A stretch of DNA of 64,000 bases from Medicago truncatula. Lineage: Eukaryota; Streptophyta; Magnoliopsida; Fabales; Fabaceae. A program made the translations under genes and the position numbers. Shown one piece after another: positions 22,408 through 52,676 of this stretch (the first letter of the stretch is position 1; every line of letters starts with the position of its first letter). The notes under the pieces are model-generated. The model saw only the letters and a list, made by a program, of their open reading frames with translations, searched no databases and was not told the origin of the DNA. The stretch covers positions 38,292,576-38,356,575 of the forward strand of contig NC_053043.1 of the NCBI RefSeq assembly GCF_003473485.1, written 5' to 3'.

Positions 22408-22408
22408 G

Positions 22409-22420
22409 TGGTATCAGAGC
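22409..22420 (+). other. Primer-binding site of the Copia-type element
   Basis: TGGTATCAGAGC is complementary to the 3' end of initiator tRNA-Met. It lies one base after the 5' LTR. Confidence 0.85.
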
Positions 22421-23041: not shown

Positions 23042-23330
23042 TCGTGAGATTGAGCTTCGATATCCGAATATCCGATTCTGGTGAAGCATCAAAGATCCGG
23101 TTGTCCATACTGAACAAACAATTGTTAAAACTATTGATGTTTGATTGTCGTATTAGGGTACCTAACTATACAAGAGTTGTATTATTATGGTTGATCAATT
23201 GTTTTCAAGAAGATTGTTGTGACTTTGAACAATTCGTGAGATTGAGCTTCGATATCCGAATCTGGTAAAGCATCAAAGATCCGGTTGTTCATGCTAAACA
23301 AACAATCCTAGAAACTATTTATGTTTAATT
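23042..23330 (+). repeat. Direct repeat inside the Copia-type element
   Basis: A sequence of about 95 bp beginning GAGATTGAGCTTCGATATCC at about 23046 recurs at about 23237, with one small deletion. No function is evident. Confidence 0.7.
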
Positions 23331-24440: not shown

Positions 24441-24573
24441 CTTCAAGACTAATATCGAAATGTGTAGGTTTCACCACCGCGAGGTGCACTTTCTATTCTA
24501 GTAAGTTGTGGTGCGGTAATTTTATTTACCGACTGTTATTTTGGATCTAACTTAACTATATTATTTTAATAAG

Positions 24574-24628
<55 letters not shown>

Positions 24629-24770
24629 CTTCAAAAGAATATTAAGTTAATTGCTTTCCAAAGGATGACACCCTTCAAGACTAATATCGAAATGTGTAGG
24701 TTTCGCCTCCGCGAGGTGCACTTTCTATACTAGTAAGTTGCGGTGCGGTAATTCCATTTACCCGACTGTT
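24441..24770 (+). repeat. Duplicated 95-bp sequence flanking a (TA)n tract
   Basis: The sequence around AATGTGTAGGTTTC...GAGGTGCACTTTCTAT occurs at about 24449 and 24690. Between the copies is a perfect TA run of about 49 bases (24578-24626), which can form cruciforms and is length-unstable. Confidence 0.75.
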
Positions 24771-27104: not shown

Positions 27105-27330
27105 TGTAGGGTTTCGTTAATCCAAAGGATACTAGAAAGGTAAATGTATTACAAAATTTATTTATTAGAGAAATCTTCTCGAAGTTAAATTGTTTATTTT
27201 ATTAACAAAGTTTTATGAAAACTTTGATTAATAAAGAAATCTTGTGCACATAAGGAGATTAGTGGGAGCATTGAAATTAGTTTGGTAGAGTATGTAGATG
27301 ACATACTAGTCACCAAAATAATTTATCTAC
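27105..27330 (+). pseudogene. Copia reverse transcriptase relic
   Basis: Short in-frame pieces NPKDTRK and, about 170 bp later, SGSIEISLVEYVDDILVTK match the Copia RT order, where the YVDD box is the catalytic site. The sequence between them contains stops and large deletions relative to a normal Copia RT. Confidence 0.65.
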
Positions 27331-27945
27331 ACATGTAAGACATGGTTAGAAAATTATTTTCAATATGTACCAAAATTGATTATAGTGTTCGACACTATAA
27401 TACCTTCAAGAATATCCTTGGATGTCTTAAAGGACTATAGATTGTTTCTTGAACACAGATGAAAGAAACATTGTAAATTAGTTACAATGATGTTGACTTT
27501 CATATCAGTGTATATTATATCCAGATCGTAATTTGGAATAAATGTTCTGCTAGGATATCAACTATGAAATTTGTAAAAGTACAAGCTTCAAATAGTTGTT
27601 GTTTCTATTACAGATGTCAAATATATATGATTTGGATTGTTTAGCTCATAACTGAGTTAAAACATGTGTTTCTTTCGTTGCGGATTCCATTGATCTCGTA
27701 TGAGGTAAAATTGGTTTAAATCTTGCGAGCAATGAAAACTTGATATCACCAATGATCCAAATGTACACTTTGATACTTCAATTTCTTTTCGATAGAAGAT
27801 CGAAAGTGGAATTTGAAAGAAGTATAGCCTACCAACATAGGAAAGAGTTCCTTATCTGCTAGTATAGTATCTTGTCAAGAGTGTGCTTGATGCTAACACT
27901 TGACCAATAGATATTGAGTTAATATTTGATTGGCTTTTAGTGCTA

Positions 27946-27954
27946 GTGGGAGAT
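27946..27954 (+). other. Polypurine tract of the Copia-type element
   Basis: GTGGGAGAT directly precedes the 3' LTR start, as expected for the plus-strand primer in Copia elements. Confidence 0.75.
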
Positions 27955-29377
27955 TGTTGGAATAAGCCCTAATAGCCAATCTATATTGATTGAGTTTGGT
28001 TTTGTATCATGATATTGATATAAATATATATTGTGAATATATAATAACAAGGCATTTCTTTATTGATTTTGTTTTGTTTCAAAATAATAAAGTCCCTAGA
28101 ATAGTTAGTCCGTTTAATGGAACATTAAGTATAACTTAACTGTGAGACCCTATTAAACATAAGGAAACTATTCTCAAAGTATCCGTAGTCAAGCTTTATT
28201 GAGAAGTGGGATATCATTAAAGCATAGAGACTATTATGTAGGTAGACTGATGATCACATCTCACAGATCATGGATAAAGAGTTATCAAGTCTTCACATAG
28301 ATATAAATATTAGGAGTAATATTTATATTGGATTGATCCGCCATGAGAATACTACATAGTAAAAGTTATGAAAAGTGTCATAAGATATTCTCATAGTGAT
28401 AGTGGTGTATTCCACCCTTCGACCTGAAACCACTATGTACCCTAGATGTTGGAGTCGAGTGCTTTGTCACCATTCAAACGTTGTCCATAACAGGATGACT
28501 ATAAAGTTGGTTGATGGGTACTCCATGAATCATGCTGAGGGACATGAGTGACCTAGATGGAATTTGTCCCTCCTACATAACAGGAGAAATGTCTATGGGC
28601 CCAATATTGAACTAGACAAGGATGACACGGTCTATGCCTTGTGTTCAATATAGACATGAGGGCAAAAGGGTAATTATACACATGATCATTATCACAGAAA
28701 GGTTTCGTCAGATCACATGACATTCTCGTCACTTGGGTAGCAGTGATGTGTTGCTAGATACCGCTCACTGTTTATAATATTAAATATGTGATTTAATATT
28801 ATTGCCAACGTTACGGGAACCTATAGGGTCACACACAAAGGACAGATAGATGAGAGAAATAAATAAGTAAGACTTATTTATAAAATAATAAGTGAGACTT
28901 ATTTATAAAATAATAAGTGAGACTTATTATTAATTAAATAATTAAATATGATTTTATTATTTAATTTACCAAAAATAGAGAAACGCGGTTCACCGTAAGG
29001 TACGGTGTATTTAAGTGTTGTCTTGTTGTCCATACAAGTGATTCTATAAATAGAACCCTTGTGTTGAAGCATTACTAACTTTTTGTGAGTGCTTAACCTA
29101 ATTCACAAAAGTTGTGAAACCCTAGCCGCCGCTCTCTAAACCTTGTTCTCTCTGAATCTTCGTTGGAATTGGCTAGCACCGGTCATCGGAGAAGTTCTGT
29201 TCGTGTGGACTGAGTAGAGGCATCGCTGCTTTGCTTTGCTCGTGATCAGAAAGATTTCTGCTACAAAGGTTCTGCTCTTCAGGAGGTAAACACATGAATC
29301 TTAAAGTGTTTAAGTTTCTGTTTGATTTGTGATTAATAATTTAATCAAGATCCGTTTTAATGGGATTTCTTCCGCAA
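27955..29377 (+). repeat. 3' LTR of the Copia-type element, right end deleted
   Basis: It matches 20942-22364 without gaps and then jumps to tandem-unit sequence (AATAAGATACTGAGG). The last 43 bp of the LTR are absent. The break continues into the host unit, so one deletion removed both the LTR end and about 500 bp of unit 3. Confidence 0.9.
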
Positions 29378-35520: not shown

Positions 35521-35567
35521 AGACACTACTAGAAAAGAACCAATTAGCGACGACCTTTTTAAAAATA

Positions 35568-35969
35568 ATGACTTTATCCGAAGAAATAGAATTAATTTAT
35601 AAAGAAATAAACAATACCATGAATGAAGTAAATAATAATATCATTTTATTAATAGAAAAAACTAATAAAATTCTAGATCACACATTTAATAAAATTAAAA
35701 TTGAACGTAGTGAAATAAATAGTATATACGAAACCTTAGACAATATAAAAGGAATTAATGAAGATGAAAACATTTTTAAAATTAGAGAAGTTCTTCAACA
35801 ACTAGAAAATCATTTAGATTATGAAGAAAATAATAGAAGCATAACAATAAAAGATATAGAAGAATTATTAAATAAAACAAGAGAAGTAAAACAATTAGAT
35901 AAAATAGTTAAACAAGAACCATTAATACCATCTATGTTAATAAACCCAATATCTTCATGGAGGGGATAA
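35568..35969 (+). CDS. Virion-associated-protein-like coiled-coil protein (endogenous pararetrovirus)
   Basis: A 133-residue, highly charged protein with long predicted helices over most of its length and a proline-containing C-terminus (LIPSMLINPISSW). Its size, coiled coil and position directly before the coat protein match the virion-associated protein (ORF III) of caulimoviruses, which tetramerises and decorates the capsid. The stop overlaps the coat protein ORF by 13 bp, as is common for compact viral genes. The ATG lies about 44 bp from the transposon end. The function is inferred from position and shape, as sequence similarity is not recognisable by eye. Confidence 0.55.
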   Translation: MTLSEEIELIYKEINNTMNEVNNNIILLIEKTNKILDHTFNKIKIERSEINSIYETLDNIKGINEDENIFKIREVLQQLENHLDYEENNRSITIKDIEELLNKTREVKQLDKIVKQEPLIPSMLINPISSWRG

Positions 35970-37453
35970 AAACTGAATATATGGAATCAATTAGGAGATC
36001 AAATGATATCGAAGAAATTAAACAATTAATGGAACAATTAAAAATAGTTGAAGAAGAAAATAAACCAATAAGTCTAGAAAAAGTAGAAAAAATAGAAACT
36101 AAAGAAGAAAATGAAGAAGTAATATTAAATTATAATTCTTCAGATCTAGAATCTGAAATAGGATCTAATGTAGGATCTGATTCTGATTTTGATGAAATAT
36201 TTATGGAGAGAGGAGAGACAAGTAATTCAAAATCAAAAAGAAAAAGAGAAGATAATTGGAGCCCACATAGTTCTTGGGAAAACTATGAAAATGAAACAAT
36301 GAATCGTAGAGGATATGCTAGAGCTAACGGAAAATGGACAAAGGTTTCCGATGAATTTAAACCCCATTATGAAGAAGGAAAATCTAAAAAATTACTAAAC
36401 CTTGATTGCGTAAGAAATCCAGAAGAAATATTAGAAAGATGGTCTAATAATATGATTATGCTCCTAGCAACCGATGAGAGATTTAGTAAGGTAAATCTAA
36501 TGGATGTTAAGAATTTAATAGCTTATAGAACAACAGGGAATGTGCTAAAAATTTTAACAAGTATTGAGGATGAAACTTGGCAACAATATGCTAGAATGAT
36601 CGAAAATAATCAACAATTTGCCAAACTAATAATAGAATTAATATATAAGGAATTTATAGGGTTTAATATCCTTGAACACAAAACACAAGTAAATAAACGT
36701 TTAAGAGAGAGAGCAGAAGCTCATTTAAATAATATGCAAATATGCAATATGTGCGAAATAGATAGCTTTATTTGTGAATTTAAAAAATATTACTATGAAT
36801 TAGATAGGAAAACTCAATTAATATATATAAATATATTTATATCCAAATTACCTTATCCACTTAGTACAAGTATAAGAGAAAAATGGAAATCTCGACCAGA
36901 AGAATTAGGTGATACCTTAGCAGGAGTAATGCAAATTTTATATGAAGAAATAAGAAATCAGTGTCTAGAAAGAGAGAAAATTAAAAACTTAAATCTAGGT
37001 AGTACTTCACTTTGCTGTAATAAATTAGAATTAGACCTACCCGAAAATTATGGTTGTAGTAAAAGAAGTAGGAAAAATCCTAGAAGAAAACCAAGGTTAA
37101 GAAGAACCTATCCAAAGAAAAGAGCCTATAAAAATACTAAGAAAAAGTATTTTAGGAAAAAGAGACAAACACCTAGAAAATATTGCCCAAAAGGAAAAAA
37201 GAAATGTGTATGCTGGATATGTAATGTAGAGGGACATTATGCTAATGAATGTCCAAAGAAGAAAGAAAAGGATACTAAAGAGACTAAAGAAAAATCAAAA
37301 ATAATAAAGAACGTATATCAAATATATAATTTAGAACCCTTAGAGGATGAACTAAGTGATAGTGATTGTAGTGTATATGAATATTTAGGAGATAACCTAT
37401 CATCAGAAGAAATAGAGTATGAATTATCTTCAGAAGAAACAGAATTTGAATAG
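35957..37453 (+). CDS. Coat protein (endogenous pararetrovirus)
   Basis: 498 residues, uninterrupted. The N-terminal third is acidic (rich in E and D), the middle is a conserved helical capsid region, and residues of about 375-415 form a strongly basic RNA/DNA-binding stretch. A CCHC zinc knuckle (C419, C422, H427, C432) follows, and the C-terminus is acidic again. This order is diagnostic of Caulimoviridae capsid proteins, which are often trimmed at the acidic ends. It overlaps the next ORF by 35 bp. The intact frame is notable for an integrated copy. Confidence 0.88.
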   Translation: MEGIKTEYMESIRRSNDIEEIKQLMEQLKIVEEENKPISLEKVEKIETKEENEEVILNYNSSDLESEIGSNVGSDSDFDEIFMERGETSNSKSKRKREDNWSPHSSWENYENETMNRRGYARANGKWTKVSDEFKPHYEEGKSKKLLNLDCVRNPEEILERWSNNMIMLLATDERFSKVNLMDVKNLIAYRTTGNVLKILTSIEDETWQQYARMIENNQQFAKLIIELIYKEFIGFNILEHKTQVNKRLRERAEAHLNNMQICNMCEIDSFICEFKKYYYELDRKTQLIYINIFISKLPYPLSTSIREKWKSRPEELGDTLAGVMQILYEEIRNQCLEREKIKNLNLGSTSLCCNKLELDLPENYGCSKRSRKNPRRKPRLRRTYPKKRAYKNTKKKYFRKKRQTPRKYCPKGKKKCVCWICNVEGHYANECPKKKEKDTKETKEKSKIIKNVYQIYNLEPLEDELSDSDCSVYEYLGDNLSSEEIEYELSSEETEFE

Positions 37454-39380
37454 TACTTATATTAAAATAAAAATTGAAAAAGAAGATAAAGAAACTGAAG
37501 CTTATATAGATACAGGGGCAAATATTTGTATAGCAACAAAAGCATTATTTAGTAAATGGGAAAAATTAGAAAAACCATTAAAGATTCAAATAGCTGATGG
37601 ATCTATACATCCATTAAATTGGGTAGCTACTAGAATTACCTTAAATATTCAAAATAAATTATTTATGGTACCTACGGTATATCAACAAGAAACAGGGTTA
37701 GATATGATAATAGGAAATAATTTTCTAAGATTATATGCACCCTTTTGCCAATACTTAGAGTATATTTCAATTAAGGCTCCATATATTAGAGGAAAACAAT
37801 TAAAAGAAATGATTGATATCCCTATAATTCATTATACAGAGACAACTTATTCAAAAAAGCAATCAGAGTTACACAAGATAAAACGTGGTGAAATTATAGG
37901 ATTAATTTGTAGAAAAATGCGCCATGTATTAGTAAATTTAGAACCAGGAAGAAGAATACCCGCACATATAGAAGAATTACTAGAGAAAGTTTGTAGTGAA
38001 GACCCACTAGATCCAAAAATTAATAAAAATATGGAATTAGTTGAATTAAAATTAAAAGATCCCTCAAAAGAAATTAAGTGTAAACCAATGATATACACAA
38101 AACAAGATAGAGACGAATTTGCTGAAGATATTAAGCAAATGTGTGAAAGAGGATTAATAAAACCATCAAAAAGTAAACATTCTGCGCCTGCATTTTATGT
38201 TGAAAACCATAATGAAATAAAAAGAGGAAAAAGAAGGATGGTAATTAATTATAAACAAATAAATGATGCAATGGAAGGAGATGCATATTTTCTTCCAAGA
38301 AAGGATTTAATTATTGAAAGGGTTAGGAATATGAATTGGTTTACCACCTTTGATTGTAAATCTGGATTTTATCAAATAAGACTAACTGAAGAATCTAAGG
38401 CTCTAACAGCCTTTAGTTGTCCCCAAGGTCAATATGAATGGAATGTGCTTCCAATGGGAATGAAACAATCACCAGGTATTTTTCAACGAAGAATGGATAC
38501 AATACTAAAAGAATTTAAGGATTTTTGTCTAATTTATATTGATGATATATTAGTTTTTTCAAATAAAGATTTGAATGATCATTTTAAAAAGGTAGAATTA
38601 GTACTAATTAAGTGTTTTGAGCATGGAGTAGTATTAAGCAAGAAAAAAGCCGTTGTAGCTCAGAATAAAATTAATTATTTAGGACTAGAAATAGAAAAGG
38701 GAAAAATTTTAATGCAAAAGCATGTGTTGGAAAAACTTCAAAATTTTCCAACTAAACTAAAAGATAAAAAGGAATTACAAAGGTTTTTAGGACTACTAAC
38801 ATACATTTCAAATGAAGGTTTTATAAAAAATCTTGCAGCCGAAAGAAAGTTACTTCAGCAAAAACTTAAGAAGGATTCAATTTGGTCATGGACCGAAGAT
38901 GATGAAGTACTTATTACTAAATTAAAGAATTTATGTCAGGACCTTCCTGAATTATATCATCCATCTGATGATGATTTAATTATTATTGAGACTGATGCCT
39001 CTAACGAATATTGGGGAGGAGTTATGAAAGCAAAACCTCCTGGACAAAAGAAAGAACTATTATGCAGATACATGTCTGGAACTTTTTCAGACAGTGAAAT
39101 TAATTATCCTACTCACGAAAAAGAAACATTAGCACTAATTCGAATGTTAGAAAAACATCGAATATATGTGCTTGACAAAGAATTTATTGTAAGAACCAAT
39201 TCTACTTATGTTGCAGGATTCAAGAATATAAATCATAAAGGAACTTATAAACAAGGAAGACATATTCGATGGCAGATGAAATTAGCCGAATATAATTACT
39301 CAATTTCTCACATCAAAGGAGAAAAGAACGTACTCGCAGACATTCTATCAAGAGAATGGAACGAAGCGAAGAATTGTTAA
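37419..39380 (+). CDS. Protease / reverse transcriptase / RNase H polyprotein (endogenous pararetrovirus)
   Basis: 653 residues, open throughout. The aspartic protease motif YIDTGA is at residues 29-34 with catalytic D31. The reverse transcriptase occupies the centre, with FDCKSGFYQIRL, LPMGMKQSPGIFQ and the catalytic YIDD at 373-376. The RNase H domain follows with the first Asp (ETDAS) and Glu (HEKE) present. The third catalytic Asp position is Asn (VRTNS, N594, codon 39198-39200), which would be expected to impair RNase H. No integrase is present, which separates it from Ty3/Gypsy elements and fits Caulimoviridae. The start near 37419 overlaps the coat protein; a later start cannot be excluded. 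Confidence 0.9.
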   Translation: MNYLQKKQNLNSTYIKIKIEKEDKETEAYIDTGANICIATKALFSKWEKLEKPLKIQIADGSIHPLNWVATRITLNIQNKLFMVPTVYQQETGLDMIIGNNFLRLYAPFCQYLEYISIKAPYIRGKQLKEMIDIPIIHYTETTYSKKQSELHKIKRGEIIGLICRKMRHVLVNLEPGRRIPAHIEELLEKVCSEDPLDPKINKNMELVELKLKDPSKEIKCKPMIYTKQDRDEFAEDIKQMCERGLIKPSKSKHSAPAFYVENHNEIKRGKRRMVINYKQINDAMEGDAYFLPRKDLIIERVRNMNWFTTFDCKSGFYQIRLTEESKALTAFSCPQGQYEWNVLPMGMKQSPGIFQRRMDTILKEFKDFCLIYIDDILVFSNKDLNDHFKKVELVLIKCFEHGVVLSKKKAVVAQNKINYLGLEIEKGKILMQKHVLEKLQNFPTKLKDKKELQRFLGLLTYISNEGFIKNLAAERKLLQQKLKKDSIWSWTEDDEVLITKLKNLCQDLPELYHPSDDDLIIIETDASNEYWGGVMKAKPPGQKKELLCRYMSGTFSDSEINYPTHEKETLALIRMLEKHRIYVLDKEFIVRTNSTYVAGFKNINHKGTYKQGRHIRWQMKLAEYNYSISHIKGEKNVLADILSREWNEAKNC

Positions 39381-40561
39381 TCCAACAACTTGGAATCAAA
39401 GAAGCACTAAAAGCTCACAAATTAAAAGAACAAGAATTAATTGGAAAGGAAGTAGAATTAATTGAAAAAGAGATAGAACTAATAAGATCACAGATCAAAA
39501 GAAAGAGTCCAATTGACGAAATTATTGTAAGAGAACCAAAGAAATGGTATGTGGTCTTCAATGGACCATTTCCAGGAATCTACGATGACTGGACAAAGCA
39601 GCCCCACACTGTCAAAAGATCTCTGGAGTCACTCACCGAGCCTACGCAACAAAAGAAGAAGCGGAGAAAGCTTTGAAGGATCATAAAGAATTAGACAAAT
39701 CAAGAAATGAAATTTATTTGGGTCCAAGAACTTTTTCCGAGCCAACAAGAAATAAGGCACCAGAAAGAGCTCCGATGAAAATCTTAGGAAGAATTCCTTT
39801 TTCCTTAGATGATCTACCTATTATTTCCAGAAAAGAACATGAACTTCAAGTACAATTTTCAGAAGAAAAATTTCAAGAAAATTTTAACAGGCTTAAAAAT
39901 TGGACGAATGAAGAAAAAAAATAATTGTTTTTACATGGTAAGCAGAAATGGTTTTGGACTTAAAGCGGTAATTACTCCTGGAGCTTCACCAATACTAGCA
40001 TTCAACATGTTTCAATTTGGACTTGTTCAATGCATTTATCTAAGTGCAAATTCTGAAGAAATTAGCCTATTCCCGGTTACTCTCAAAGATGTAGTCCAAT
40101 CATACAAAAGAAATATTGCAAGAGAAAGATCTATCTACATCAAGTTTTACTCAGCATATCCCGATTTCTCTACTAATCAACCAGCTATGCATTTTGTTCA
40201 AGTTGGAATCAACAATCATCAGTATCCATTAATGGACGAAGCAAGAGAAGAAGTATTAAGTGAAGAACAAATTGATATGATTATTGCTAATCAATTAGCA
40301 AGTATATTTTCCCAATGTCAATCAATCACTAAAAACTCTCATATCAAGGTACTTAGCAAAACAAAGAATATGCTAATCTCAAGCAAAACAAGTGGCAAAA
40401 TAATCCAAGAAAAAGACATGCAACTACTAACAAGTTTTGAAGTACCATTCTACTCACTAAACAAGGAATTATTAAACTATAAACCAAGAATCTTAAAAGA
40501 ATTATGCTTAAGCATAAGAGGAAGCATTAATCATGCTTGTGAGTTGTACGTGCATGCATGA
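39356..40561 (+). pseudogene. Transactivator/viroplasmin (ORF VI) relic, frame-shifted (endogenous pararetrovirus)
   Basis: The region starts 25 bp inside the end of the polymerase ORF. The first frame (39356-39676) has a charged helical N-terminus and then WYVVFNGPFPGIYDDW, the core signature of the Caulimoviridae translational transactivator. Shortly after that motif (about 39590-39600) the family-like reading passes to another frame, which runs to 39924. A second shift falls at an eight-base A run (39914-39921), and the remainder is open in a third frame to 40561. In exogenous viruses this protein forms inclusion bodies and permits translation of the polycistronic RNA. The two breaks should disable it here. 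Sequencing error at the homopolymer is a lesser possibility. Confidence 0.8.
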
Positions 40562-40693
40562 GGAAAGGACTGAAGCAATTGCCAAGTGCACGGACATGTG
40601 TCTTGAAGAAGAAGAGAAAAAGCCATGCTGAAAATGTAGTTGCCTTCATGCATGGAGACAAGTAATAAAGCAGTGTCATAAAAATGTGTAAGG

Positions 40694-40774
40694 GTGAATA
40701 GTGTTAGAGTGAATAGTGCTATGAATAGTACTATGATGAATAGTGCTATGAATAGTGTTATGTATGAATAGTAG
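40694..40774 (+). repeat. Six TGAATAGT repeats upstream of the viral promoter
   Basis: TGAATAGT starts at 40695, 40710, 40722, 40737, 40749 and 40765, with spacings of 12-16 bp. The cluster ends about 15 bp before the TATA box at 40788, a position where enhancer elements would sit. Confidence 0.75.
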
Positions 40775-40787
40775 TAGAGCCTTTTGG

Positions 40788-40800
40788 CTTATAAATAAAG
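40788..40800 (+). promoter_or_regulatory. Pregenomic (35S-like) promoter TATA box of the endogenous pararetrovirus
   Basis: CTTATAAATAAAG lies in the large intergenic region between the transactivator and the movement protein, where Caulimoviridae start the pregenomic RNA. The gap downstream to the movement protein start is about 430 bp. Confidence 0.65.
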
Positions 40801-40934
40801 GCTTGTAACGAGAGTAAGGGAAGCTGTAGTAGAAAGCTCTATGCTTGTAAAGTTTCTCTAAGAAACTTAACTAAGTCTTAGGATTTAGTTGTTGGCACTT
40901 TAGTGCTTTTCTTTTCTGGTAATCAATTTTCATA

Positions 40935-40940
40935 AATAAA
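40935..40940 (+). terminator. Candidate viral polyadenylation signal
   Basis: AATAAA lies about 140 bp downstream of the TATA box. In this family the poly(A) signal lies just downstream of the promoter, so that the terminally redundant RNA ends there after one round. Confidence 0.5.
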
Positions 40941-41228
40941 ATTCATCCTTCACTTACTTAATTCCATTCATTATCTACTTATTATCTACTTATTACTACA
41001 AATATATATACCACTAATTCTATTTAAGACTACCTAAAGCTACGGAAGCAGCGGTGGACCGATCACTAATTCATGAAAATCATGAGCAGGTATAACTACT
41101 TAACTTTGTTTAATTTAAATTAAGCTTTTATTATATAATGTTAGCACTTATGTTCTATGTATTATTATCTAATATTAAGTTTAAGTATTTTCATTTTAAG
41201 AACTAGTTAATATAATTATCTATTAATT

Positions 41229-42137
41229 ATGGGGGATATAGAACATTTAAATATAACTGAAGAAGATGGAAATTATGAAGGAAGTATTTTAATTGATCCT
41301 ACTTTGTTTCAAAAAATACAAAAAGAAGATCTAGACCTAACTAACGATGCTAATATGAAAGGAAAAGAAAAAATTGGAGGAAAAATGAAAAGATTTAACC
41401 AAAAAGAAAACATTATATACTATGGAAAGTTAATTAATGAGTCTCCTACAGATATTGCGGATGCTCAAGGACACACCTATATTAAGTTGTTAGACAAGAA
41501 GAAACTTATGGAATTAAAAAGAAACATAAAGAAAGAAGAACATAGGAATAGAATAGGATATATTCATATAGGAGCTATACAAGTATTAATTAAATCTACT
41601 TTTCAAGAAGGAATTAATTCTCCGTTAGAACTAATATTAAAAGATGATAGAATTACAGATTCAGTTGATAAAATACTAGGAGTTGTTGAAGGAAACCTAG
41701 CGTACGTCAAATTAAAATTCGAAATACATCCTAACATAGGAATCCCATTAGACACTCAAAGACTAGATCAAGCACTTACTCTAGAGCATAAATTCTTAAG
41801 AGGAAATTTAATGAAACCCGGAGATAAAATATTTTCTATTACTTATTGCGTTAATTATGCATTAACGAATTCACATCATAGCATTACTTTCAGAAATAAT
41901 AATAGAATAGATGTCCCTAGTCTATTCGAAGACATAGGAAAAATTTACTATCCAAAAAGAAATGAAATAACGGAATTAGAAACTTTTATAAATAGATCAA
42001 AGATTTTAGAATTAAAAGGAACAAGGATACCTAGACCAATTAGATTTCACGAACCAGAAAAAGTTGAAGAAAGTAACATTGATAAATTATCTAATCAAGT
42101 AAAAGAATTAACCACATATTTAAAAAATAGGTTATAA
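41229..42137 (+). CDS. Movement protein (endogenous pararetrovirus)
   Basis: 302 residues, uninterrupted. It belongs to the 30K-type movement protein superfamily by the central beta-rich region (YIHIGAIQVLIKSTF, then LAYVKLKFEIHPNIG) and the motif YALTNSHHSI, a hallmark of Caulimoviridae movement proteins. The C-terminus is predicted to be a coiled coil (SNIDKLSNQVKELTTYL), as in CaMV P1, where it binds the virion-associated protein. These proteins form tubules through plasmodesmata. It follows the promoter and leader and is the first ORF on the pregenomic RNA. Confidence 0.85.
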   Translation: MGDIEHLNITEEDGNYEGSILIDPTLFQKIQKEDLDLTNDANMKGKEKIGGKMKRFNQKENIIYYGKLINESPTDIADAQGHTYIKLLDKKKLMELKRNIKKEEHRNRIGYIHIGAIQVLIKSTFQEGINSPLELILKDDRITDSVDKILGVVEGNLAYVKLKFEIHPNIGIPLDTQRLDQALTLEHKFLRGNLMKPGDKIFSITYCVNYALTNSHHSITFRNNNRIDVPSLFEDIGKIYYPKRNEITELETFINRSKILELKGTRIPRPIRFHEPEKVEESNIDKLSNQVKELTTYLKNRL

Positions 42138-42175
42138 AATATTTAGCTAGACTATCAATTTGGTATAAAATAAAT

Positions 42176-42529
42176 ATGGCAGAATTTAGTATTAATGAGA
42201 AAGAAAAAATAATACATATAAGATTAAAAGATTGGGATATAGCTTATGAAGATAGTATTGAAATCAAAGAAAAAGATTTTTATGAAAAATTAAAATGTAT
42301 ATGGAAACTGAATTTACCGAAAGAAATAAGGTCAAAAATTTGTGAAGAATATGGTAAATTATGCGGACAAGCAATACTTTACGAAAGTGAGATAGATTAT
42401 GCATTAGGAAATATGATGGATGACATTTTAATGGACGAATATATAGTTTCTACGTATTATGAAGGAAATCCATTAGATTTTGCCTTAGTAGAAAACAATG
42501 AAATATGGGATTATTTAGATGATGACTAA
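42176..42529 (+). CDS. 117-aa acidic ORF of unknown function (endogenous pararetrovirus)
   Basis: An open, acidic ORF 38 bp after the movement protein, ending in WDYLDDD. It matches no family I can name. Its place between the movement protein and the primer-binding site corresponds to ORF Ib of soymoviruses, so it may be a lineage-specific accessory protein. Confidence 0.6.
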   Translation: MAEFSINEKEKIIHIRLKDWDIAYEDSIEIKEKDFYEKLKCIWKLNLPKEIRSKICEEYGKLCGQAILYESEIDYALGNMMDDILMDEYIVSTYYEGNPLDFALVENNEIWDYLDDD

Positions 42530-42582
42530 AATTATTAAAAGAATTCCGAAAAAATTTCTGAATTATCTAAGCATCAATTATT

Positions 42583-42594
42583 TGGTATCAGAGC
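42583..42594 (+). other. tRNA-Met primer-binding site of the endogenous pararetrovirus
   Basis: TGGTATCAGAGC is complementary to the 3' end of plant initiator tRNA-Met and primes minus-strand DNA synthesis. It is intact and lies after the movement protein and the 117-aa ORF, not directly upstream of the movement protein as in CaMV. Confidence 0.85.
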
Positions 42595-42618
42595 ACTAAA
42601 GATTCAAAAATAACTAAA

Positions 42619-42783
42619 ATGGAAAATTTAGAAAATTCTAAGATTTCAGATGAGAAATCTAGAAAACTAAAATTACAACAAATTTTAAGTAAAATACAAA
42701 GAGAAAAATTAGAACTAGAGAATAAAATAAATATTTTACAAAAGAAAATTAGGAAATTAGAAAATGAGTATAAGCAGAACTAA
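42619..42783 (+). CDS. 54-aa leucine-rich coiled-coil ORF (endogenous pararetrovirus)
   Basis: A short ORF 25 bp after the primer site. Its sequence is almost entirely charged residues with regular leucine/isoleucine spacing (LELENKINILQKKIRKLENE), giving a clear coiled coil. It overlaps the next ORF by 20 bp. It is too short for a confident family assignment; a small structural or transmission-related protein is possible. Confidence 0.45.
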   Translation: MENLENSKISDEKSRKLKLQQILSKIQREKLELENKINILQKKIRKLENEYKQN

Positions 42784-42967
42784 AGATATAATAAAAATAT
42801 TATACATTAAATTAGATTATAATATTAAAATAGGAAATGATGATGAAATAGGTAGGACTTCAAAATACCTTTTAGAATATGAAAATAAATTAAAATTATA
42901 TGAAGATTTATTAAAAAGTATAAACGAATTTAATTCCGTCACCAATGATCAGCGACGAGGAAATTAG
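42764..42967 (+). CDS. 67-aa ORF running from virus into transposon sequence
   Basis: The ORF starts inside the preceding coiled-coil ORF and is helical and charged. Its last ten or so codons (from about 42936) fall in the CACTA subterminal sequence, so the natural end of the viral ORF has been lost or replaced by the integration. It is therefore probably a truncated viral ORF II equivalent. Confidence 0.4.
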   Translation: MSISRTKDIIKILYIKLDYNIKIGNDDEIGRTSKYLLEYENKLKLYEDLLKSINEFNSVTNDQRRGN

Positions 42968-43027
42968 AGACAGATTTATTAAATCCGTCATTAAAATTCG
43001 TCACTATTTCAACATATTTTAGTAGTG
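42936..43027 (-). repeat. Right terminal region of the CACTA element
   Basis: Read inward on the minus strand it starts CACTACTAAAATATG and contains repeated GTGACG, ATGACGG and CGTCGCT motifs, the usual subterminal repeats of CACTA elements. The matching left end is 35524-35567. Confidence 0.7.
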
Positions 43028-43030
43028 AGA

Positions 43031-44848: not shown

Positions 44849-46362
44849 TTAGGACTGAAATTTTACCATGACCCAACGTTTCAATGTACTATCAAAACTG
44901 CCGAATTTTAGAACCCACGGTAGGAAAAATAAAAAATAAAAAATTCTTTACATCCACCGAATATGTAATGATAAAAATATGTCTACCGTAATTTATCTTG
45001 CTACACTCTACATATATGAACACTTTTATCCATTCTCCAAAACTATTCATGAAGAATCATATTTGTAAGGAAATCACTAAACACGATAAATAATTGTAAG
45101 AAAGTGTTATGATATTGTTCGAATTAGTAGAGAAAGTTTTATGATATATAGTTTCCTTCAACCTGTACATAAATATTGAACAAATCATTCATGTATTTAA
45201 ATTCAAGTTCAATCAAGCAACATTTTTCAAAAAATTACACGGATGGGATTCGTACTACATGAATTTGGCAGTACAACACGATAAGCCTTTGACCCAACAA
45301 ACAGAAATATACTTAAGGAATATTAATCATTTGGTCCTACTGAAATATACACAAACAAAGTATATTATTTGGAGTATCACATACTAGGAACCAATAAACA
45401 AAGGTAAATCAAATGTGTTGAGCTGCTATCCACTTTGGAATATCCATTCAGGCTTTTTAGCATGTTTTCATCTTAATGTTAACATCATATCTGAAAAACG
45501 GTGTTGAGCTCGGTAATGAAAATTCTTCTTAACCTGAGCATCATAGTGAGACTCCCAAACACATTTTGTCTGCACCATCTTCAACCCTCTTCTTTCTCCT
45601 TGCAGGGTTAGTATTTAAGCATGTGTCATTTCCATGTAAAACGAGAAGCCGAGTACACTTGCATATATCCTCTCAAGGATGTTGTTTCCAAACAAGCTTG
45701 TCCAATCCATCACATATTCAAGTATAGGATAATTTGGATTACAAAAGAAACATAGTTTAGAAACAAAAATAATAGTACAATGAGCTACTTAAAATGAGTC
45801 TTGATTTGGATTTCAAGTGTTGAACGGAAATATTAATTGTTATACATGTTTCGCATGATTAATGAGTTAAACAACTTGCTGCTCCTGACAAAAATAAAAA
45901 AATAAAAAAAATAACTTGCTGCTAGCACTGACTTATACTATATCTTTGATACTCATCAAGGATTAAAATATGTGTAATTGTCCTTTATTTTTCTTTTTTC
46001 TTTTTTTACATTCAGTATCTGGCCTAAGGATCGATTAATCTTAGGGTTTCAATCTTAATGTTAATTCTCTCCATTAAGTTTCAGTTTAGTATTAGTCAGC
46101 AAAATGATGTAACATCATTATTTCATCTAAAGTTTATCAAGGAAAAGATAGGGTGAAAAAAATGTATGCAATAAAGAGGAGCTAGAAAACCATATAGCAA
46201 GTTAATAAGAGAAAGCAAGAGCAAGTGATGAACAAAATGCATAAATAGATTCACTACCTGTTTACCGATTCCACCCATGCCCAAGGTTGCAACCTTGACG
46301 GTCATTGCACACTTGCCTCCAACGGTGTTGTGTTCTCTTTGTCGTGAGGCTCCTCCATACTT
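44849..46362. repeat. Diverged duplicate block A
   Basis: Sequence beginning AGGACTGAAATTTTACCATG and running to about 45417 matches 48968-49630. Then 45420-45690 matches parts of 51560-52015, and 46136-46362 matches 52440-52676. Block A is shorter than block B because it lacks the segment equivalent to 49770-51480. It includes a transposase-like exon with frame breaks on the minus strand (about 45430-45600). Confidence 0.75.
46258..46358 (-). pseudogene. Exon-like module, copy A (frame-shifted)
   Basis: On the minus strand it starts ATGGAGGAGCCTCACGAC and ends GGTAAACAG|GTAGTG, an apparent splice donor. A one-base loss relative to the copy at 52566-52667 shifts the frame. The encoded end would be LGMGGIGKQ. 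The gene it came from was not recognised. Confidence 0.4.
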
Positions 46363-48022
46363 GAGAAAAAAGGTTTAAGAAAAATACCACATGGGTATAA
46401 ATTTGTAAGACTGGTGAGAGGGAGATAAATGATAGATGAAGTTGAATATGATAGAGTTGAAAGAGTCGATGAGAAATAATTGAGTAAAATAAATGAAGAA
46501 AAAACAATTACGGTTTTGTTTGTGAGTAAGGGAATGAGTGAAAGAAAATTGGAAGTGAGTGCAAGGTTACAAGTTTGAGATGAAAGAAGTGGAATATATA
46601 AGTGAAATTTATGGGTTTTGTTTAAATAACATTGAATGTCACCACCAAACAAAATAACATTGAATGCATAAAATTAAGAAAGTTAAAGATTGCATTGCTT
46701 ACCAACAATGATTGGTCCAAGTGGTAAGAAATTTAGACTAATTAAATATATGATCAGTGTTTAATTCATAGCTTATGCGTATGAAAAAATTTGATACGAA
46801 GGGAGAACCTACCTTATACGCCCTACATGTTTTTCAATGCAGATTAATCATTGTTAAGCAACGGTTGATACTTTATACTAATATTATGGAGAGAAAAAAA
46901 ATGAACTACTTTATGCAGCAAACAGCAAACGGAACAACACATGCCCCTCAAAAAAATCTAACAACACTATAACTCCAAAGCACATGACATTTGCAGTAGA
47001 CCACATTCCATGATTACAAATTATATCCCCATATGAAATCTCCACACTCAATCACACTGATCCAACGGCCAAAATCTCACTAAAATCACAAAACAATATG
47101 AAGCAATGCAAATGCTTATGATCTATAACAACTATAAAATAGCAATGGTAGTTATACTAAAGTTCTAAATAACATGCTTTTAAAAGATAAAGTAGAATTA
47201 AACTAACCGCCTAAAATTATTCCATCATAATTTATTTTAAAATTAATTCCAACGTGTTATTACTCTAAAAAAAAAAAACTAATCTCTAATTATAATATAT
47301 CCATCAATACTCCTTATTTTACTTTTTTTGAGGGAACTCCTTATTTTACTTATTTTAAGTATCGTATCACATATATGGTTCAAAAATCAAAATAAATAAA
47401 TAAACTAATCAAGAAGGAGTCCCACCTCCTTTCGGTTTCAATCAGCCCTATTAGAAAATTAATCAAGTCCGGTAGTAAAAAGGAAGAAAGATATGTGTGA
47501 CTTTTTCAATATAAGTCGTCCTTTCTCCTATGCTACTACTACAAGTACAAATTTGCCTTCTTTTTTATTTTCAATAAAGCATAACATTGACAAAGTAGGC
47601 ACAAATTAAAAAAGACCATCCTTTTATGCGATTATGGTCCATCCTTGAAAGAAATAATCAAAAGTGTTACATAATTGAGTTCAGCAGATTAAATTGAGTT
47701 CGGCAGGTTATTGAATCAAGACAGACATAACTATTCAATAATTAAAAGCAAAGGATTGAAAAAGAAGAAGTACTTGATCTTGAATGATTAAAAAAGAAGT
47801 TTCAACACAAAGGGACAACTTTAAGAAGTGGAAAGAGTCTCATAACACTTTATCTTTGTTTCTTTGCATATTTGCTCTTTCAAAATCATACAGCTCACAA
47901 GGGACCTCTCATATACGGCTACCTCCTGCAGCATAATTACAATAAGATGTTTGATATACGCCTATCTGAGTGTATATACACCTAAAAAGATTAATAGATA
48001 AGAGAGAATGATATGATAGATG
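46363..48022. other. Intergenic DNA
   Basis: AT-rich. No coding, RNA or repeat feature could be supported. Confidence 0.5.
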
Positions 48023-48034
48023 TTATAGATAAGT

Positions 48035-48564
48035 ATTTTATTTTTTTGAAGAAACAAAAACGGTGTATATTAACACAGTTAGAGACGCCTCTTTAACATA
48101 AGGTGTGCCAAAAAGATCGCTCAAATTACAAAGTGTCTGTCAAATGATTACATAAAAGTCCGATAGCTGATACCCAAACAAGACCACCATTGCTGACTAC
48201 CATATACGAAAGTGGCATTTTTAGCCTTCAACCATTAGTAAGAATGAAATTTTACCTTATCTATGAACTATCTAACGGAAGTGTGAAAGTTATTAAATAT
48301 TCTATTATTACGTTCTTTCCACACTAAACAAACACAAAGGAGCCAAAGTAACTGGAGAAACGATCGACGAGTCCTCAAGCCTTCGAGATAATTAGTAAAC
48401 TGGAAAAAATGAGCTTGGAGATTTTGATGATCAACTCCTGAAACACCAATCCGAACCTTCTGCCAAATGGAGCCATAAATGTCGCAGTGAATAAACAGAA
48501 GTTGTTCGCTTTCAACCTGGCCACATCCTGCCGAACAAGAGATGTCCTCGGTAGAGAATATTTT
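48035..48564 (-). pseudogene. LINE ORF2 3' fragment (zf-RVT region)
   Basis: The frame contains [18 protein letters not shown], the zinc-finger region found after plant LINE reverse transcriptases, then LCVCLVWKERNNRIFNN and, after an in-frame stop, WWLKAKNATFVYG, typical of the ORF2 C-terminus. It belongs to a different LINE lineage from the one at 15509, which continues into an RNase H-like domain. Confidence 0.8.
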
Positions 48565-48642
48565 TTTGACCATTTCTCGATTTGTGCGTGTCATCCTTGC
48601 GCAGGGGCCATGATAATCTTCTTTGTATCGTTCCAATTTTAT
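48565..48642 (-). pseudogene. U6: U6 snRNA pseudogene, 5'-truncated
   Basis: The minus strand matches plant U6 from about nucleotide 20 to near the 3' end, including the ACACGCACAAAT and GGAACGATAC segments. Two substitutions were noted in the GATACAGAGAAGATTAGC region. The 5' stem-loop and any upstream promoter (USE, TATA) are missing, so it is not an active gene. Confidence 0.9.
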
Positions 48643-49790
48643 AGATAAGTTATGTGGTAGGAAGAGAAAGATAAAGAGAAAATAAGATGTTGAATATGTA
48701 CATAGAATTATAAAGTGTTTAGATATAATGGTGGATGAACGCATGACAAACGTATAACAAACGGTCAATAAAGCAAATTCAATGTAGATATTATTATGGC
48801 CTCAAAATATAAAATAAATAAATAAAAGTTGAACAAAGTTATTGTATTCCATTAAAAAATTTAACCAAATATATCAATTTTGTTTAACATTTTTTTCTTA
48901 TATTTATAATGAGAATGGAGTATAGTTTAGCATGGATTTGGATTTTAAAATGAGGTCATTAGTAAGGACTGAAATTTTACCATGGCCCAACGTTTGAATG
49001 TATCAAAAGTGCCGAATTTTAGAACCCACGGTGGGGAAAAACAATGCTTAAAATCATACATCCACCGAATATGTAGATAAAAATATGTATACAATAATTT
49101 ATCTTGCTACACTCAATACATAAATGAACCCTTTTATCCATTCTCCAAAATATTCATGAATCATATCTATAGAAACTTGAAGAAATCACTAAATAGTAGT
49201 TCCAAAATGACACAACAAATAATTGTAAGAAAGTGTTATGATATTGTTCGAATTAGTAGAAAAAGTGATTTGATTTGATATATATAGTTTCCTTAGTCAG
49301 CTGATTCTAAGGCTAATTCGTAAACATTTGAGAGTGGTTCCTTCAACCCTGTACATAACTATTGAACAAATCATTTCAGCATTTAGATTCAAGTATTTTA
49401 AATTCAAGTTCAATCAAGCAATATTTTTCAATAGTTTACACAGATAGGATTCTTACTAGATGAATTTGGCAGTACAATACGATAAGCTTTTTTCCTAACA
49501 AACAGAAATATACTACTCAAATACTTACAGAATATTAATAATTTCTTCCTACGGAAATATACACAAACAAAGTTATATTATTGGAGTATCACATACTAGG
49601 AACCAATAAACACAGGTAAATAAAAGGTGTAGAATTTATATTATATTAAACTAATAATCGAAGGTGTTTATAACAAAAAAGAAAACAACGAACAAACACA
49701 AGGTATTGAGCTCCTTAAGCTGACAATGCGTAACAAAAAGTAATTACAACAAGGTATGCCGACTACCTTGTTTACCGATTCCACCCATGC

Positions 49791-51920
49791 TCAAAGTGGC
49801 AGCATTGCACACCTTGCCTTCAAGGACGGTGTTGAGAGGCTCCTCCATACTTGAGTCCTCATCTCTTCAAGCTCTTTTCGACTCTGAGTCCTCGCTTGTT
49901 CAAGCTCCACTTGATTTTGAGTCTGCATCTGCTGACTCAATTGTTGTATTAGTGTCACCATTTCAGGGGTCATCTCCACGTTACGAGAACCGCCTTCTCC
50001 ATCAATAGATCGTTCATAAATACATCTATTGTGTATCAAGTTGGAGGACATGGTTTCAGCACCACAATATTTGTCACTTCTTTCATGTTCGACTGTTTCC
50101 TTCCAAATGGTTTGTGTAGTAGAATGATCAAGTAAATGCTTTGTACCCGTTAGAGATGAGCCATCTGATTGAGATAATACCTCTTTAGTTCTCTCATCAA
50201 ACCTCTTCTATATACGTAGATAATAACACTTGTTAATTCAAATTACAATTGATAAGAAAAATAACTTCTTAGTATATGTTTGGTTGGCCGTTTGAATGGC
50301 CAAACGCACGTCAAAATCCTTTGAACTCTATCAAACTCAATTTTCAGTTTTTCACCAATATCAAAGTGTACTCAGTGTTCTTAATTTTTACCCAAGGTTA
50401 GATAAAAAGTAACATAAAAGTTGGAAACTAAACAAATATGTAATATTGATGTCGAATTTTGTGTTAAAGAATATGTACCAAGCAAACAACTTTTTTTTAC
50501 TTAATCAAACCATATTATTTCGAGAAAAACAAAGGAAATTATAAGGCTTCAAATATATAATTACTAAATGTCTCATATAATAATAATGAGAATAGTATGA
50601 ACCTAACTACAACAGATTAACATAAAGTAAGTATTTTCTTTCACTATACCAAACTGTAATAGCCCGGTGGCAGCTGGTCAATAAGTGAGTAAAATTAGCC
50701 AGTTGAATATATAGTTATGAAAATGTATATATGTTACTTCATGCTCATTTGCTCACCTAACATCAAACGGAATACTCCCTCTGTCCCAAATTATAAACAA
50801 AAAAAAACTCAATTTCTTTGTCCTAAATTATAAGCAAAAAAGACCAACTTTTATCATATTTAATTATGTTTTTTCAAAAAATTATATTTTCCAAAGGAAA
50901 ATTAAATGTAAAGTGCATTCAATTTGCTCTCTTTTTCATTTTCTCTATAATCAACTACCAATGAAAATTGTTTTTATATCTTCCTATAAAACTTATTTCA
51001 AAGATAACACAAAAAACTATGTTACAAATTGACTACTATGTTTTAGTTTTCTTAATAAGTGTATTTTTTATGTATTTTTTGCTTATAATATGGGATGGAT
51101 GGAGGGCACTGCCTAATGCCATAAATTCAGCTAAAAGAATAAATCAAACAATTAAAAAATATTAAAGTGTAAATTTAACTGAGTGGTTTTAGCACAAGAA
51201 TCAACATATTCACAAGTGCATTTTTTTCTTGTGCCGTTTTTTGTGCAATTCATTAATAAATGCAAGTCGTCCGAGGGTGTGTTTCTAATTTAGCACAACA
51301 TAAAATTAATTATAAGTGGTAAAAAATAAAGTTAGTTAGAATTTGTGAGTAACTAAATATATACAAATATATAAAAATTAAGAATTAAATGTATGTTTAC
51401 CATGCGTTGACTGGTTGTATAACAACTTACAGAACCACCTGACTGCAGGCAACCTCCCTTCTCTGAAGCTCGGTTAACTTTTCCAATCTGTGAATGTTTT
51501 TGAAATGTTGGATCTGTAGCCCAATGATCTAATAAGCGAGGCCAACCATCTACTCCTATCCACTTTGGAATCCATTCAGGCTTTTTAACATGTTTTCGTC
51601 TTAATGTTGACATCATATATGATAAACGGTGTTGAGCTCGGTAATGAAAATTCTTCTTAACCTGAGCATCGTAGTGAGACTCCCAAACACATTTCGTCTG
51701 CACCAAAGAAACATATTATTTTTTAAGCAAGAAATAGTATTAAAACTAACAAAATATAATTAAATATACTAGACAATAAAACATAATTAATAAATTGAAA
51801 AAAAGTAATTTATTAAATTTAATGCTTCAATAAAATATATCTATTTAACTTGTAAAGGAGATTATATATACTACCTGCCCATCTGCAACCCTCTTCTATA
51901 TCTCCTTGCAGGGTTAGTAT
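49791..51920 (-). pseudogene. Plant En/Spm-type (Transposase_24-like) transposase relic
   Basis: Minus strand. Exon at about 51697-51400 follows a TTGGTGCAG acceptor and encodes TKCVWESHYDAQVKKNFHYR..., RLSYMMSTLRRKHVKKPEWI and NRASEKGGCLQSGGSVSCY, which resemble the conserved core of plant Ptta/En/Spm-type transposase proteins. A later exon (about 50217-49791) encodes RFDERTKEVLSQ and a glutamine-rich coiled coil (EMVTLIQQLSQQMQTQNQ), the usual C-terminal part. A MITE sits in the intervening intron. No upstream catalytic region was found, so the gene is incomplete. Confidence 0.6.
50775..51106. mobile_element. Stowaway-type MITE
   Basis: The left end CTCCCTCTGTCCCAAATTAT and the right end, in reverse complement CCCTCCATCCATCCCATATT, form terminal inverted repeats about 330 bp apart. 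A TA directly precedes the left end. The conserved CTCCCTC...CCCAAATTATAAGC start is that of Stowaway (Tc1/mariner-type) MITEs. It is non-coding. Confidence 0.8.
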
Positions 51921-52565
51921 TTAAGCATGTGTCATTTCCATGTAAAACGAGATGCCGAGAACACTTGCATATATCCTCTCAAGGATGTTGTTTTCAAACA
52001 AGCTTGTGCAATTCCATCACATTTAGAAACAAAAATAATAGTGTTGAACGGAACGATTAATTGTTATACATGTTTCGCATATGTATTGATTTGGATTTCA
52101 AGTGTTGAACGGAAGATTAATTGTTATACATGTTTCGCATGATTAATATGAGTTAAATAACTCGCTGCTACAACTGACATATACTATATGTTTGACACAT
52201 TTTGTATTGAATGTCTCTAAACGCAGAGAAGGGATTTCAGCTGAGATGCAATTAGTGAATTTTTAACAGGGCAAGAGATCAAAAAAGGTATATATGATGA
52301 TGTATAATGAGTGTATGTTGTTTCAGTTGCATAAACCATCATGGATGAAAGGTGGTTTCAATCTTAATTTTAATCAACAAAATGCTGTAACATTATTTCA
52401 TCTAAAGTATTAATTAAGGAGGAGGTCAAAACTAAAATTTATTAAGGAAAAGATAGGGTGAAAAAAAATGTATGCAATAAAGAGAAGAGAAAATTTTACA
52501 TATAGCAAGTTAAGAAGAGAAAGCAAGAGCAAGTGATGAATAAAATGCAGAGATAGATTCACTAC

Positions 52566-52667
52566 CTGTTTACCGATTCCACCCATGCCCAAGCTTGCAG
52601 CCTTGACGGTCATTGCACACCTTGCCTCCAACGGTGTTGGGTTCTCCTTGTCGTGAGGCTCCTCCAT
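52566..52667 (-). other. Exon-like module, copy B (open)
   Basis: A 34-codon open exon from ATG (52667) to a CAG|GTAGTG donor. It starts MEEPHDKENPTPLEA and ends KAASLGMGGIGKQ. GMGGIGK resembles a nucleotide-binding P-loop, but the following exon was not found and the resemblance may be chance. Copies exist at 46258 and about 49768. Confidence 0.35.
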
Positions 52668-52676
52668 ACTTGATTA

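What the first reader, a model, noticed from the sequence alone, without database searches (positions are those of the whole stretch)
35521..43030. A full-length pararetrovirus genome sits inside a CACTA transposon
Seen: CACTACTA-type inverted ends at 35524 and 43027, GCGACG-type subterminal motifs, an identical AGA on both outer sides, and one genome length of Caulimoviridae between them with almost no other transposon sequence. Known: CACTA elements make 3-bp target duplications and often capture host DNA; pararetroviruses integrate by illegitimate recombination. Inference: viral DNA entered a small CACTA element, or was captured by one. If the composite later moved, the virus genome gained a transposase-driven route to copy itself in the genome, which I do not know to be described.
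Basis: partly seen in the sequence, partly recalled or inferred. Interest (0 to 1): 0.92.

Follow-up and report, generated by a model that had tools for sequence, protein, structure and literature searches.

The report
Plant virus genome with transposon ends
In what is presumably a plant genome, a complete-length relative of soybean-type pararetroviruses is bounded by the ends of a CACTA "jumping gene"; relatives of one junction protein keep the virus-transposon join, which suggests an old hybrid that could use the transposon's machinery to enter chromosomes.

Summary
At 35524 and 43027 lie CACTACTA/TAGTAGTG inverted ends, flanked by the same 3 bp (AGA), with CACTA-type subterminal motifs in the outer ~44 and ~107 bp. 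In between is one genome length (~7.35 kb) of a pararetrovirus on the stem of the Soymovirus clade: movement protein, coat protein, protease-RT-RNase H, a frame-broken transactivator region, a promoter-like region and a tRNA-Met primer site. No transposase was found, and the viral map is circularly permuted.

The new result is that the join is probably not a one-off. A small viral ORF runs into the CACTA right end and takes its last ten codons and its stop from it. Of 6 database relatives of this protein (68-97% aligned identity), 4 reach that point and all 4 have a matching tail (10, 6, 6 and 4 of 10 residues) ending at the same place. So the fusion seems to predate these lineages. Yet this copy still has long open CP, Pol and MP frames; neutral drift predicts about nine or more stops. 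I read it as an old virus-CACTA hybrid lineage, comparable with Teratorn, inserted here as a unit. A circular stage is inferred.

The host genome could not be searched (28 of 28 calls unanswered).

The parts
35521..35523 (.). left copy of the 3-bp target duplication (AGA)
35524..35567 (+). CACTA left end: terminal repeat CACTACTAGAAAA, subterminal GCGACGA at 35547-35553
35568..35969 (+). left-junction ORF, 133 aa, starts at the first ATG after the CACTA left end; position of the last small ORF before CP in soymoviruses
   Evidence: 10 database relatives; of the 10, 4 run from the same start to the same end
35957..37453 (+). coat protein ORF, 498 aa, zinc knuckle, open
   Evidence: PF22909, PF00098
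37419..39380 (+). protease - reverse transcriptase - RNase H ORF, 653 aa, open
39296..40561 (+). transactivator (TAV, ORF VI-like) region (its 5' part overlaps the end of Pol); appears broken by frame changes: open pieces 39296-39676, 39589-39924, 39809-40561
   Evidence: partial Cauli_VI, PF01693, at about 39542-39598
40562..41228 (+). large intergenic region; promoter-like, with GAATAGT-type repeats 40680-40772 and TATAAATA at 40790 (by eye; no promoter scan was run); points toward MP
   Evidence: promoter role inferred from soymovirus layout (PMC6482551 passage)
41229..42137 (+). movement protein ORF, 302 aa, open
   Evidence: PF01107
42131..42529 (+). small open frame after MP (132 codons stop to stop), no domain above the curated cut-off
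42583..42594 (+). tRNA-Met primer binding site TGGTATCAGAGC, exact
   Evidence: same 12-mer given for a soymovirus in PMC6482551. The count in the window is not above chance by itself (up to 2 mismatches: 3 found, 2.7 expected)
42571..42783 (+). small open frame (70 codons stop to stop), overlaps the next ORF
42764..42967 (+). right-junction ORF, 67 aa here (80-82 aa in the four relatives that reach the end; 15 residues fewer here); begins in virus, last ten codons and stop lie in the CACTA right end
42921..43027 (+). CACTA right end with subterminal motifs at 42933, 42952, 42982, 42995 and terminal TTTTAGTAGTG; inner boundary uncertain by ~15 bp
43028..43030 (.). right copy of the 3-bp target duplication (AGA)

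Best explanation
A soymovirus-like pararetrovirus genome became fused, between two small genes upstream of the coat protein gene, with the two ends of a CACTA transposon, so that the virus lies inside the element. The fused unit inserted at this site by CACTA transposition, using transposase supplied from elsewhere, and duplicated AGA (ends and duplication shown; transposition and transposase inferred). The fusion is old: diverged relatives keep the tail that the CACTA end adds to a viral ORF (shown at protein level only). Because viral genes stayed open after the fusion, and because in the linear copy the coat, polymerase and transactivator genes lie upstream of the only viral promoter-like region, the lineage probably also existed as a circle with the two CACTA ends joined between these genes (inferred). 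The CACTA ends would then serve as a borrowed integration and excision device.
For: Ends, 3-bp duplication and subterminal motifs coincide with the limits of the virus. One genome length, soymovirus gene order. No transposase domain in the 9 ORFs or open pieces of the element given to Pfam (the right-junction ORF was not given). Pol sister to the 10 sampled soymovirus-clade rows, 100/100. The CACTA-encoded tail of the right-junction ORF has a counterpart ending at the same place in P0133, P0134, P0135 and P0136 (97, 85, 83, 76% overall identity; 10, 6, 6 and 4 of the 10 tail residues identical), that is, in 4 of 6 relatives; the other 2 end before it, P0137 apparently by a frame change (its last six residues match another frame of the window) and P0138 at 49 aa. 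Expected stops on the window's branch in CP, Pol, MP and left-junction ORF under neutral drift: 8.9 to 14.8 for 15-24% protein divergence, P(0) 1.3e-4 to 3.7e-7; 2.9 stops and P(0) 0.057 at 5%. In the right-junction tree the stem of window plus P0133 is 0.094 changes per residue. Both junctions fall at gene boundaries: ATG of the next gene at 35568, the tail of the previous gene at 42935.
Against: No second genomic copy, empty site or circular junction was seen, because the host genome search did not complete. The relatives are protein records under labels such as jgi, ena and lgn without organism, so I did not see their DNA or their outer ends; sharing of the left junction was not tested. Outside P0133 the tail is less alike (4-6 of 10) than the rest of the protein. 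The terminal repeat is short (8 bp perfect). The TAV region is frame-broken and the right-junction ORF lacks 15 residues, so this copy is decayed in part. The drift estimate used four ORFs chosen because they are open, left out TAV and the other small ORFs, and assumes that half of the divergence fell on this line. None of the 120 polymerase hits listed (of 235) is above 51% identical, so no other copy with a long open polymerase of this lineage was found; other copies are presumably broken or partial.
Confidence: 0.66

Rival explanations
1. Passive cargo: a CACTA element captured the virus genome once (for instance as filler DNA during repair after transposon excision), and the composite then multiplied only by transposase as a non-autonomous element; the viral genes do nothing.
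For: Capture of host DNA by CACTA elements is known (recalled). Some relatives look broken (P0126 and P0137 apparently by frame changes, P0122 lacking the N terminus). No polymerase above 51% among the 120 listed hits of 235. TAV is broken here.
Against: After the divergence implied by 76-85% identity of tail-sharing relatives, 1586 codons of CP, Pol, MP and left-junction ORF should hold about 9-15 stops; they hold none (these ORFs were chosen because they are open). Four of 10 left-junction relatives run full length at 69-95% identity, though databases of ORFs favour open ones.
Confidence: 0.22
2. Virus first, transposon ends incidental: the tail of the right-junction ORF is really viral, and the virus integrated by ordinary illegitimate recombination inside a pre-existing short CACTA element at this one site.
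For: Filler-DNA integration is one of the usual proposals for endogenous caulimovirids (PMC10377300, section read). The inner boundary is uncertain by ~15 bp. The tail motifs were recognised after looking, and the tail is only 4-6 of 10 alike in three of the four relatives.
Against: The tail carries two of the CACTA subterminal motifs (42933 and 42952), whose only other occurrences in 64 kb are in the rest of the same two ends. Most neighbouring viral frames here overlap, leaving little room for an extra ~60-100 bp.
Confidence: 0.1
3. Chance: the CACTA-like ends and AGA repeats are coincidental and the element is an ordinary endogenous pararetrovirus.
For: CACTA and TAGTG are short words; 13 pairs with equal 3-bp flanks exist in the window.
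Against: None of 300 simulated windows gave an 8-bp pair with equal flanks, and here it coincides with both limits of the virus and with motif clusters.
Confidence: 0.02

Closest known systems
Teratorn (piggyBac-like transposon fused with an alloherpesvirus, medaka)
   Same: [quoted passage not shown] an excised circular form has been proposed (PMC5601938 abstract and outline, PMC10175614 passages)
   Different: Different virus (reverse-transcribing, ~7.4 kb), different transposon superfamily (CACTA), presumably plant host. Teratorn carries a transposase gene and retains transposition activity; here no transposase was found inside
Genus Soymovirus and endogenous soymoviruses
   Same: Gene order MP, small ORFs, CP, Pol, TAV, large intergenic region; tRNA-Met primer site; Pol sister to the clade
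   Different: Pol at most 49% identical to the named soymoviruses in the tree; CACTA ends between two small ORFs
Non-autonomous CACTA (En/Spm) elements carrying captured DNA (recalled kind)
   Same: CACTA/TAGTG ends, 3-bp duplication, subterminal repeats, no own transposase
   Different: Cargo is one complete-length virus genome, and the tail over the junction is kept in diverged relatives
Endogenous banana streak virus beside a Ty3/Gypsy element
   Same: A transposable element proposed to have carried a caulimovirid into the genome (PMC10377300 passage)
   Different: Retrotransposon flanking the virus, not DNA-transposon ends enclosing it

Membership tests
CACTA (En/Spm) transposons | terminal repeats beginning CACTA and ending TAGTG | tested here: met
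CACTA (En/Spm) transposons | 3-bp target site duplication (PMC4158355 passages) | tested here: met
   AGA on both sides
CACTA (En/Spm) transposons | subterminal repeats near both ends | tested here: met
   that this defines CACTA is recalled, motif list post hoc, word counts alone not above shuffles (6 and 8 of 100 reach them)
CACTA (En/Spm) transposons | own DDE transposase | tested here: not met
   no transposase domain in the 9 ORFs or open pieces of the element given to Pfam; so at most a non-autonomous member
CACTA (En/Spm) transposons | several copies at different sites with different duplications | not testable with these tools
   The genome search gave no answer in 28 of 28 tries
Caulimoviridae | Caulimovirid coat domain, A3 protease, RT-RNase H, viral movement protein | tested here: met
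Caulimoviridae | tRNA-Met primer binding site | tested here: met
   exact 12-mer at 42583
genus Soymovirus | polymerase inside the genus clade | tested here: inconclusive
   sister to the 10 sampled rows of the clade, 100/100: stem lineage or new genus
genus Soymovirus | small ORFs between MP and CP, large intergenic region after TAV | tested here: met
   compared with PMC6482551 passages
Teratorn-like transposon-virus fusions | complete virus genome between ends of a cut-and-paste transposon | tested here: met
   one gene region broken
Teratorn-like transposon-virus fusions | fusion shared by several lineages or copies | tested here: inconclusive
   junction tail in 4 of 6 relatives, the other 2 end before it; protein level only, right junction only
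Teratorn-like transposon-virus fusions | transposition activity | not testable with these tools
   needs an experiment

The most novel reading that the evidence does not exclude
A pararetrovirus lineage that carries the joined ends of a CACTA transposon in its circular genome and uses the host's CACTA transposase as a borrowed integrase: it can be cut out of, or put into, chromosomes as a provirus and returns to a circular, transcribable form by excision. This would be a retrovirus-like life cycle in plants built from a DNA transposon.
Probability: 0.42. Interest if true: 0.94.

Novelty: new variant of a known kind. Interest (0 to 1): 0.8.

Why it matters
How caulimovirids enter plant genomes is called speculative in the 2023 review (PMC10377300, section 11 part 1 read). 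It names break repair and LTR retrotransposon machinery, and mentions in one sentence a suggestion that a transposon-derived integrase could be hijacked; the words CACTA and TIR do not occur in it. PMC9794742 also mentions transposon-mediated integration as a proposal (passage). A virus genome bounded by CACTA ends, with the join apparently kept in diverged relatives, gives a concrete route that leaves a readable signature (CACTA ends, 3-bp duplications) and can be searched for in any plant genome. It would also be another case of fusion between a cut-and-paste transposon and a virus; the 2023 Teratorn review calls Teratorn the first (passage). Six of my seven literature searches addressed this. 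Among the papers they listed (30 of 86, 3 of 3, 20 of 548, 21 of 21, 15 of 15, 6 of 6; titles and abstract starts seen) none describes a CACTA-caulimovirid fusion. The library is open-access only.

Tried and rejected
Own-genome search for the left junction (genome search): tried 28 times, same request, always 'busy or cannot be reached'. Waits by sleeping scripts (parts of 66, 82, 87, 89, then 91, 92, 94-96, 102-105) did not help.

No relative was found in the viral or prokaryote contig collections: Pol, left-junction protein P0121, right-junction alignment and Pol alignment gave none in viral contigs; the right-junction alignment gave none in genome contigs. A degenerate junction pattern gave two viral-contig loci. 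Neither shows blastn similarity to the element. I listed the ORFs of L001 without identifying them and did not look further at L002; I took both as chance. Two further patterns gave none (genome contigs, viral contigs).

Considered and rejected: a CACTA element inserted into the virus in the ordinary way. In the circular viral order the right end's terminus comes first and the left end's second, the reverse of an ordinary insertion, so the virus is inside the element. Also rejected: that the virus was opened at its primer-site gap; the junction is ~340 bp from it.

No second copy of the element of 150 bp or more lies in the window (blastn E up to 1e-10; this would miss the short ends). The terminal 13-mer with up to 2 mismatches has 4 matches, 2 of them the ends, against 2.98 expected. 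Three protein searches are all used, so whether relatives' CP or MP exist was not tested.

Full report
Observation. The ends described are in the sequence. CACTACTAGAAAA begins at 35524, TTTTAGTAGTG ends at 43027, and AGA stands on both outer sides; 8 bp are perfect and 10 of the first 11 match. This is the only CACTACTA/TAGTAGTG pair 1-15 kb apart in the window, and 0 of 300 simulated windows gave a pair with equal 3-bp flanks. The outer ~44 and ~107 bp carry motifs of the CACTA subterminal kind. GCGACGA occurs only there (2 of 2 in the window), AWTYCGTCAY only in the right end (3 of 3), and GACG/CGTC is enriched there (5 in 151 bp against 6 in 7353 bp of virus). The counts of the first two words are not in themselves above chance (8 and 6 of 100 shuffles reach them); it is their placing that speaks. 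I chose these motifs after seeing the ends, and 'CACTA-like subterminal repeat' is from memory.

Interior. Pfam finds the caulimovirid coat domain with zinc knuckle (35957-37453), A3 protease, reverse transcriptase and RNase H (37419-39380), and the viral movement protein (41229-42137), with a partial transactivator domain at about 39542-39598. The primer site TGGTATCAGAGC is at 42583. In circular order the map is MP, small ORFs with the primer site, right-junction ORF, [CACTA ends], left-junction ORF, CP, Pol, TAV, large intergenic region. That is the soymovirus layout as described for water chestnut soymovirus 1, a 7535-bp genome with four small ORFs between MP and CP (PMC6482551, passages). 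The virus part here is about 7.35 kb, one genome length. In a tree of 33 polymerases the window's sequence is sister to the 10 sampled rows of the Soymovirus clade with 100/100 support; the best identity is 49%. No transposase domain was found in the 9 open frames or pieces of the element given to Pfam (the right-junction ORF was not given).

State of the genes. CP (498 aa), Pol (653 aa), MP (302 aa) and the left-junction ORF (133 aa) are open. The TAV region is split into open pieces in two frames. The right-junction ORF is 67 aa here and 80-82 aa in the four relatives that reach its end; 15 residues near its start are missing here.

The junction looks old and shared. The right-junction ORF begins in viral sequence at 42764. 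Its last ten residues and its stop (42935-42967) lie in the CACTA right end, over the motifs at 42933 and 42952. A search of 5.8 billion proteins found 6 relatives among 6 candidates. Four of the 6 (P0133, P0134, P0135, P0136; 97, 85, 83 and 76% identical in the alignment) have a matching tail that ends at the same column. In these ten residues P0133 matches the window at 10, P0134 at 6, P0135 at 6 and P0136 at 4, so outside P0133 the tail is less alike than the rest. The other two end before it: P0137, apparently after a frame change (its last six residues equal those of another frame of the window just before the boundary), and P0138 at 49 residues. The left-junction ORF has 10 relatives among 61 candidates. 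Four of the 10 run from the same start to the same end (P0121, P0123, P0124, P0125), one lacks the start, and the rest are partial or apparently frame-broken. Some of these proteins come from contigs of 13-27 kb, longer than the virus. Their DNA could not be fetched, so the sharing is shown at protein level and on the right side only.

Why the virus part seems to have stayed functional after the fusion. If relatives with 76-85% identity share the fusion, the window's line has had time to change by about half of the difference. Taking the observed divergence as if it were neutral, the four open ORFs (1586 codons) should have gained about 8.9 to 14.8 stops and have none (indels not counted). The chance is 1.3e-4 to 3.7e-7. 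With only 5% divergence it would be 0.057, so the argument leans on P0134-P0136. Left out of the count: TAV, which is broken, and the other small ORFs. The four ORFs were chosen because they are open. The protein tree gives a stem of 0.094 changes per residue on the window side, in line with the halved figure.

Mechanism. Insertion of the unit by transposition is the simplest reading of ends plus 3-bp duplication; the transposase must come from elsewhere. In this linear, permuted copy the only promoter-like region (40562-41228, judged by position and a TATA-like box, no promoter scan run) faces MP and the small ORFs and then runs out of the element at 43027, while CP, Pol and TAV lie upstream of it. 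Selection on those genes therefore needs a circular form, in which the CACTA ends would be joined between the two junction ORFs. That arrangement is what excision of the element with end joining would produce. Both junctions lie at gene boundaries, so neither junction ORF is cut off without a start or a stop. Shown: anatomy, duplication, shared tail. Inferred: transposase in trans, circular stage, selection.

Against this reading. No second locus, empty site or circle was seen; the host genome search did not complete (28 calls, listed in Tried and rejected). None of the 120 polymerase hits listed of 235 exceeds 51% identity, although junction-ORF relatives are close; probably the polymerase is broken in those copies, which fits a decaying, passive family too. 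I give passive cargo 0.22.

Comparison. Teratorn is the precedent: a piggyBac-like transposon and a herpesvirus fused into one mobile element that retains transposition activity (PMC5601938, abstract and outline only). Its review calls it the first fusion of a cut-and-paste transposon with a DNA virus and proposes an excised circular form (PMC10175614, passages). The element here would work like that, but is neither a member of that family nor an autonomous CACTA. For caulimovirids the 2023 review (PMC10377300, section 11 part 1 and passages) lists break repair and retrotransposon-linked routes and one sentence on hijacking a transposon-derived integrase. The word CACTA does not occur in PMC8256270, PMC13308828 or PMC9794742 (listing), of which I saw passages only (PMC9794742 passages). 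Six searches (two of the lists were capped) listed no paper describing such a fusion, within an open-access library.

Noticed in passing
window 3595-34992: Tandem array of units of about 5 kb, copies about 98-99% identical, interrupted by other elements; four 80-bp double repeats recur in it.
   Followed up: partly
window 15515-18668: LINE-like open frames (RVT_1, zf-RVT, RVT_3) inserted in the tandem array; frames still long.
   Followed up: partly
window 20942-29377: Likely LTR retrotransposon: direct repeats 20942-22364 and 27955-29377 98.8% identical, exact tRNA-Met primer site at 22409 just inside the left repeat.
   Followed up: no
window 43138: A second CACTA-like terminus (CACTACAAC) only 110 bp to the right of the element; no partner TTGTAGTG found downstream in the window.
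   Followed up: partly
window 40680-40772: Cluster of GAATAGTG(C/T)TA repeats just upstream of the TATA-like box of the viral intergenic region; possibly enhancer-like.
   Followed up: no
window 44851-52673: Diverged direct duplications (74-94%) of about 150-680 bases at about 4-6 kb spacing right of the element.
   Followed up: no
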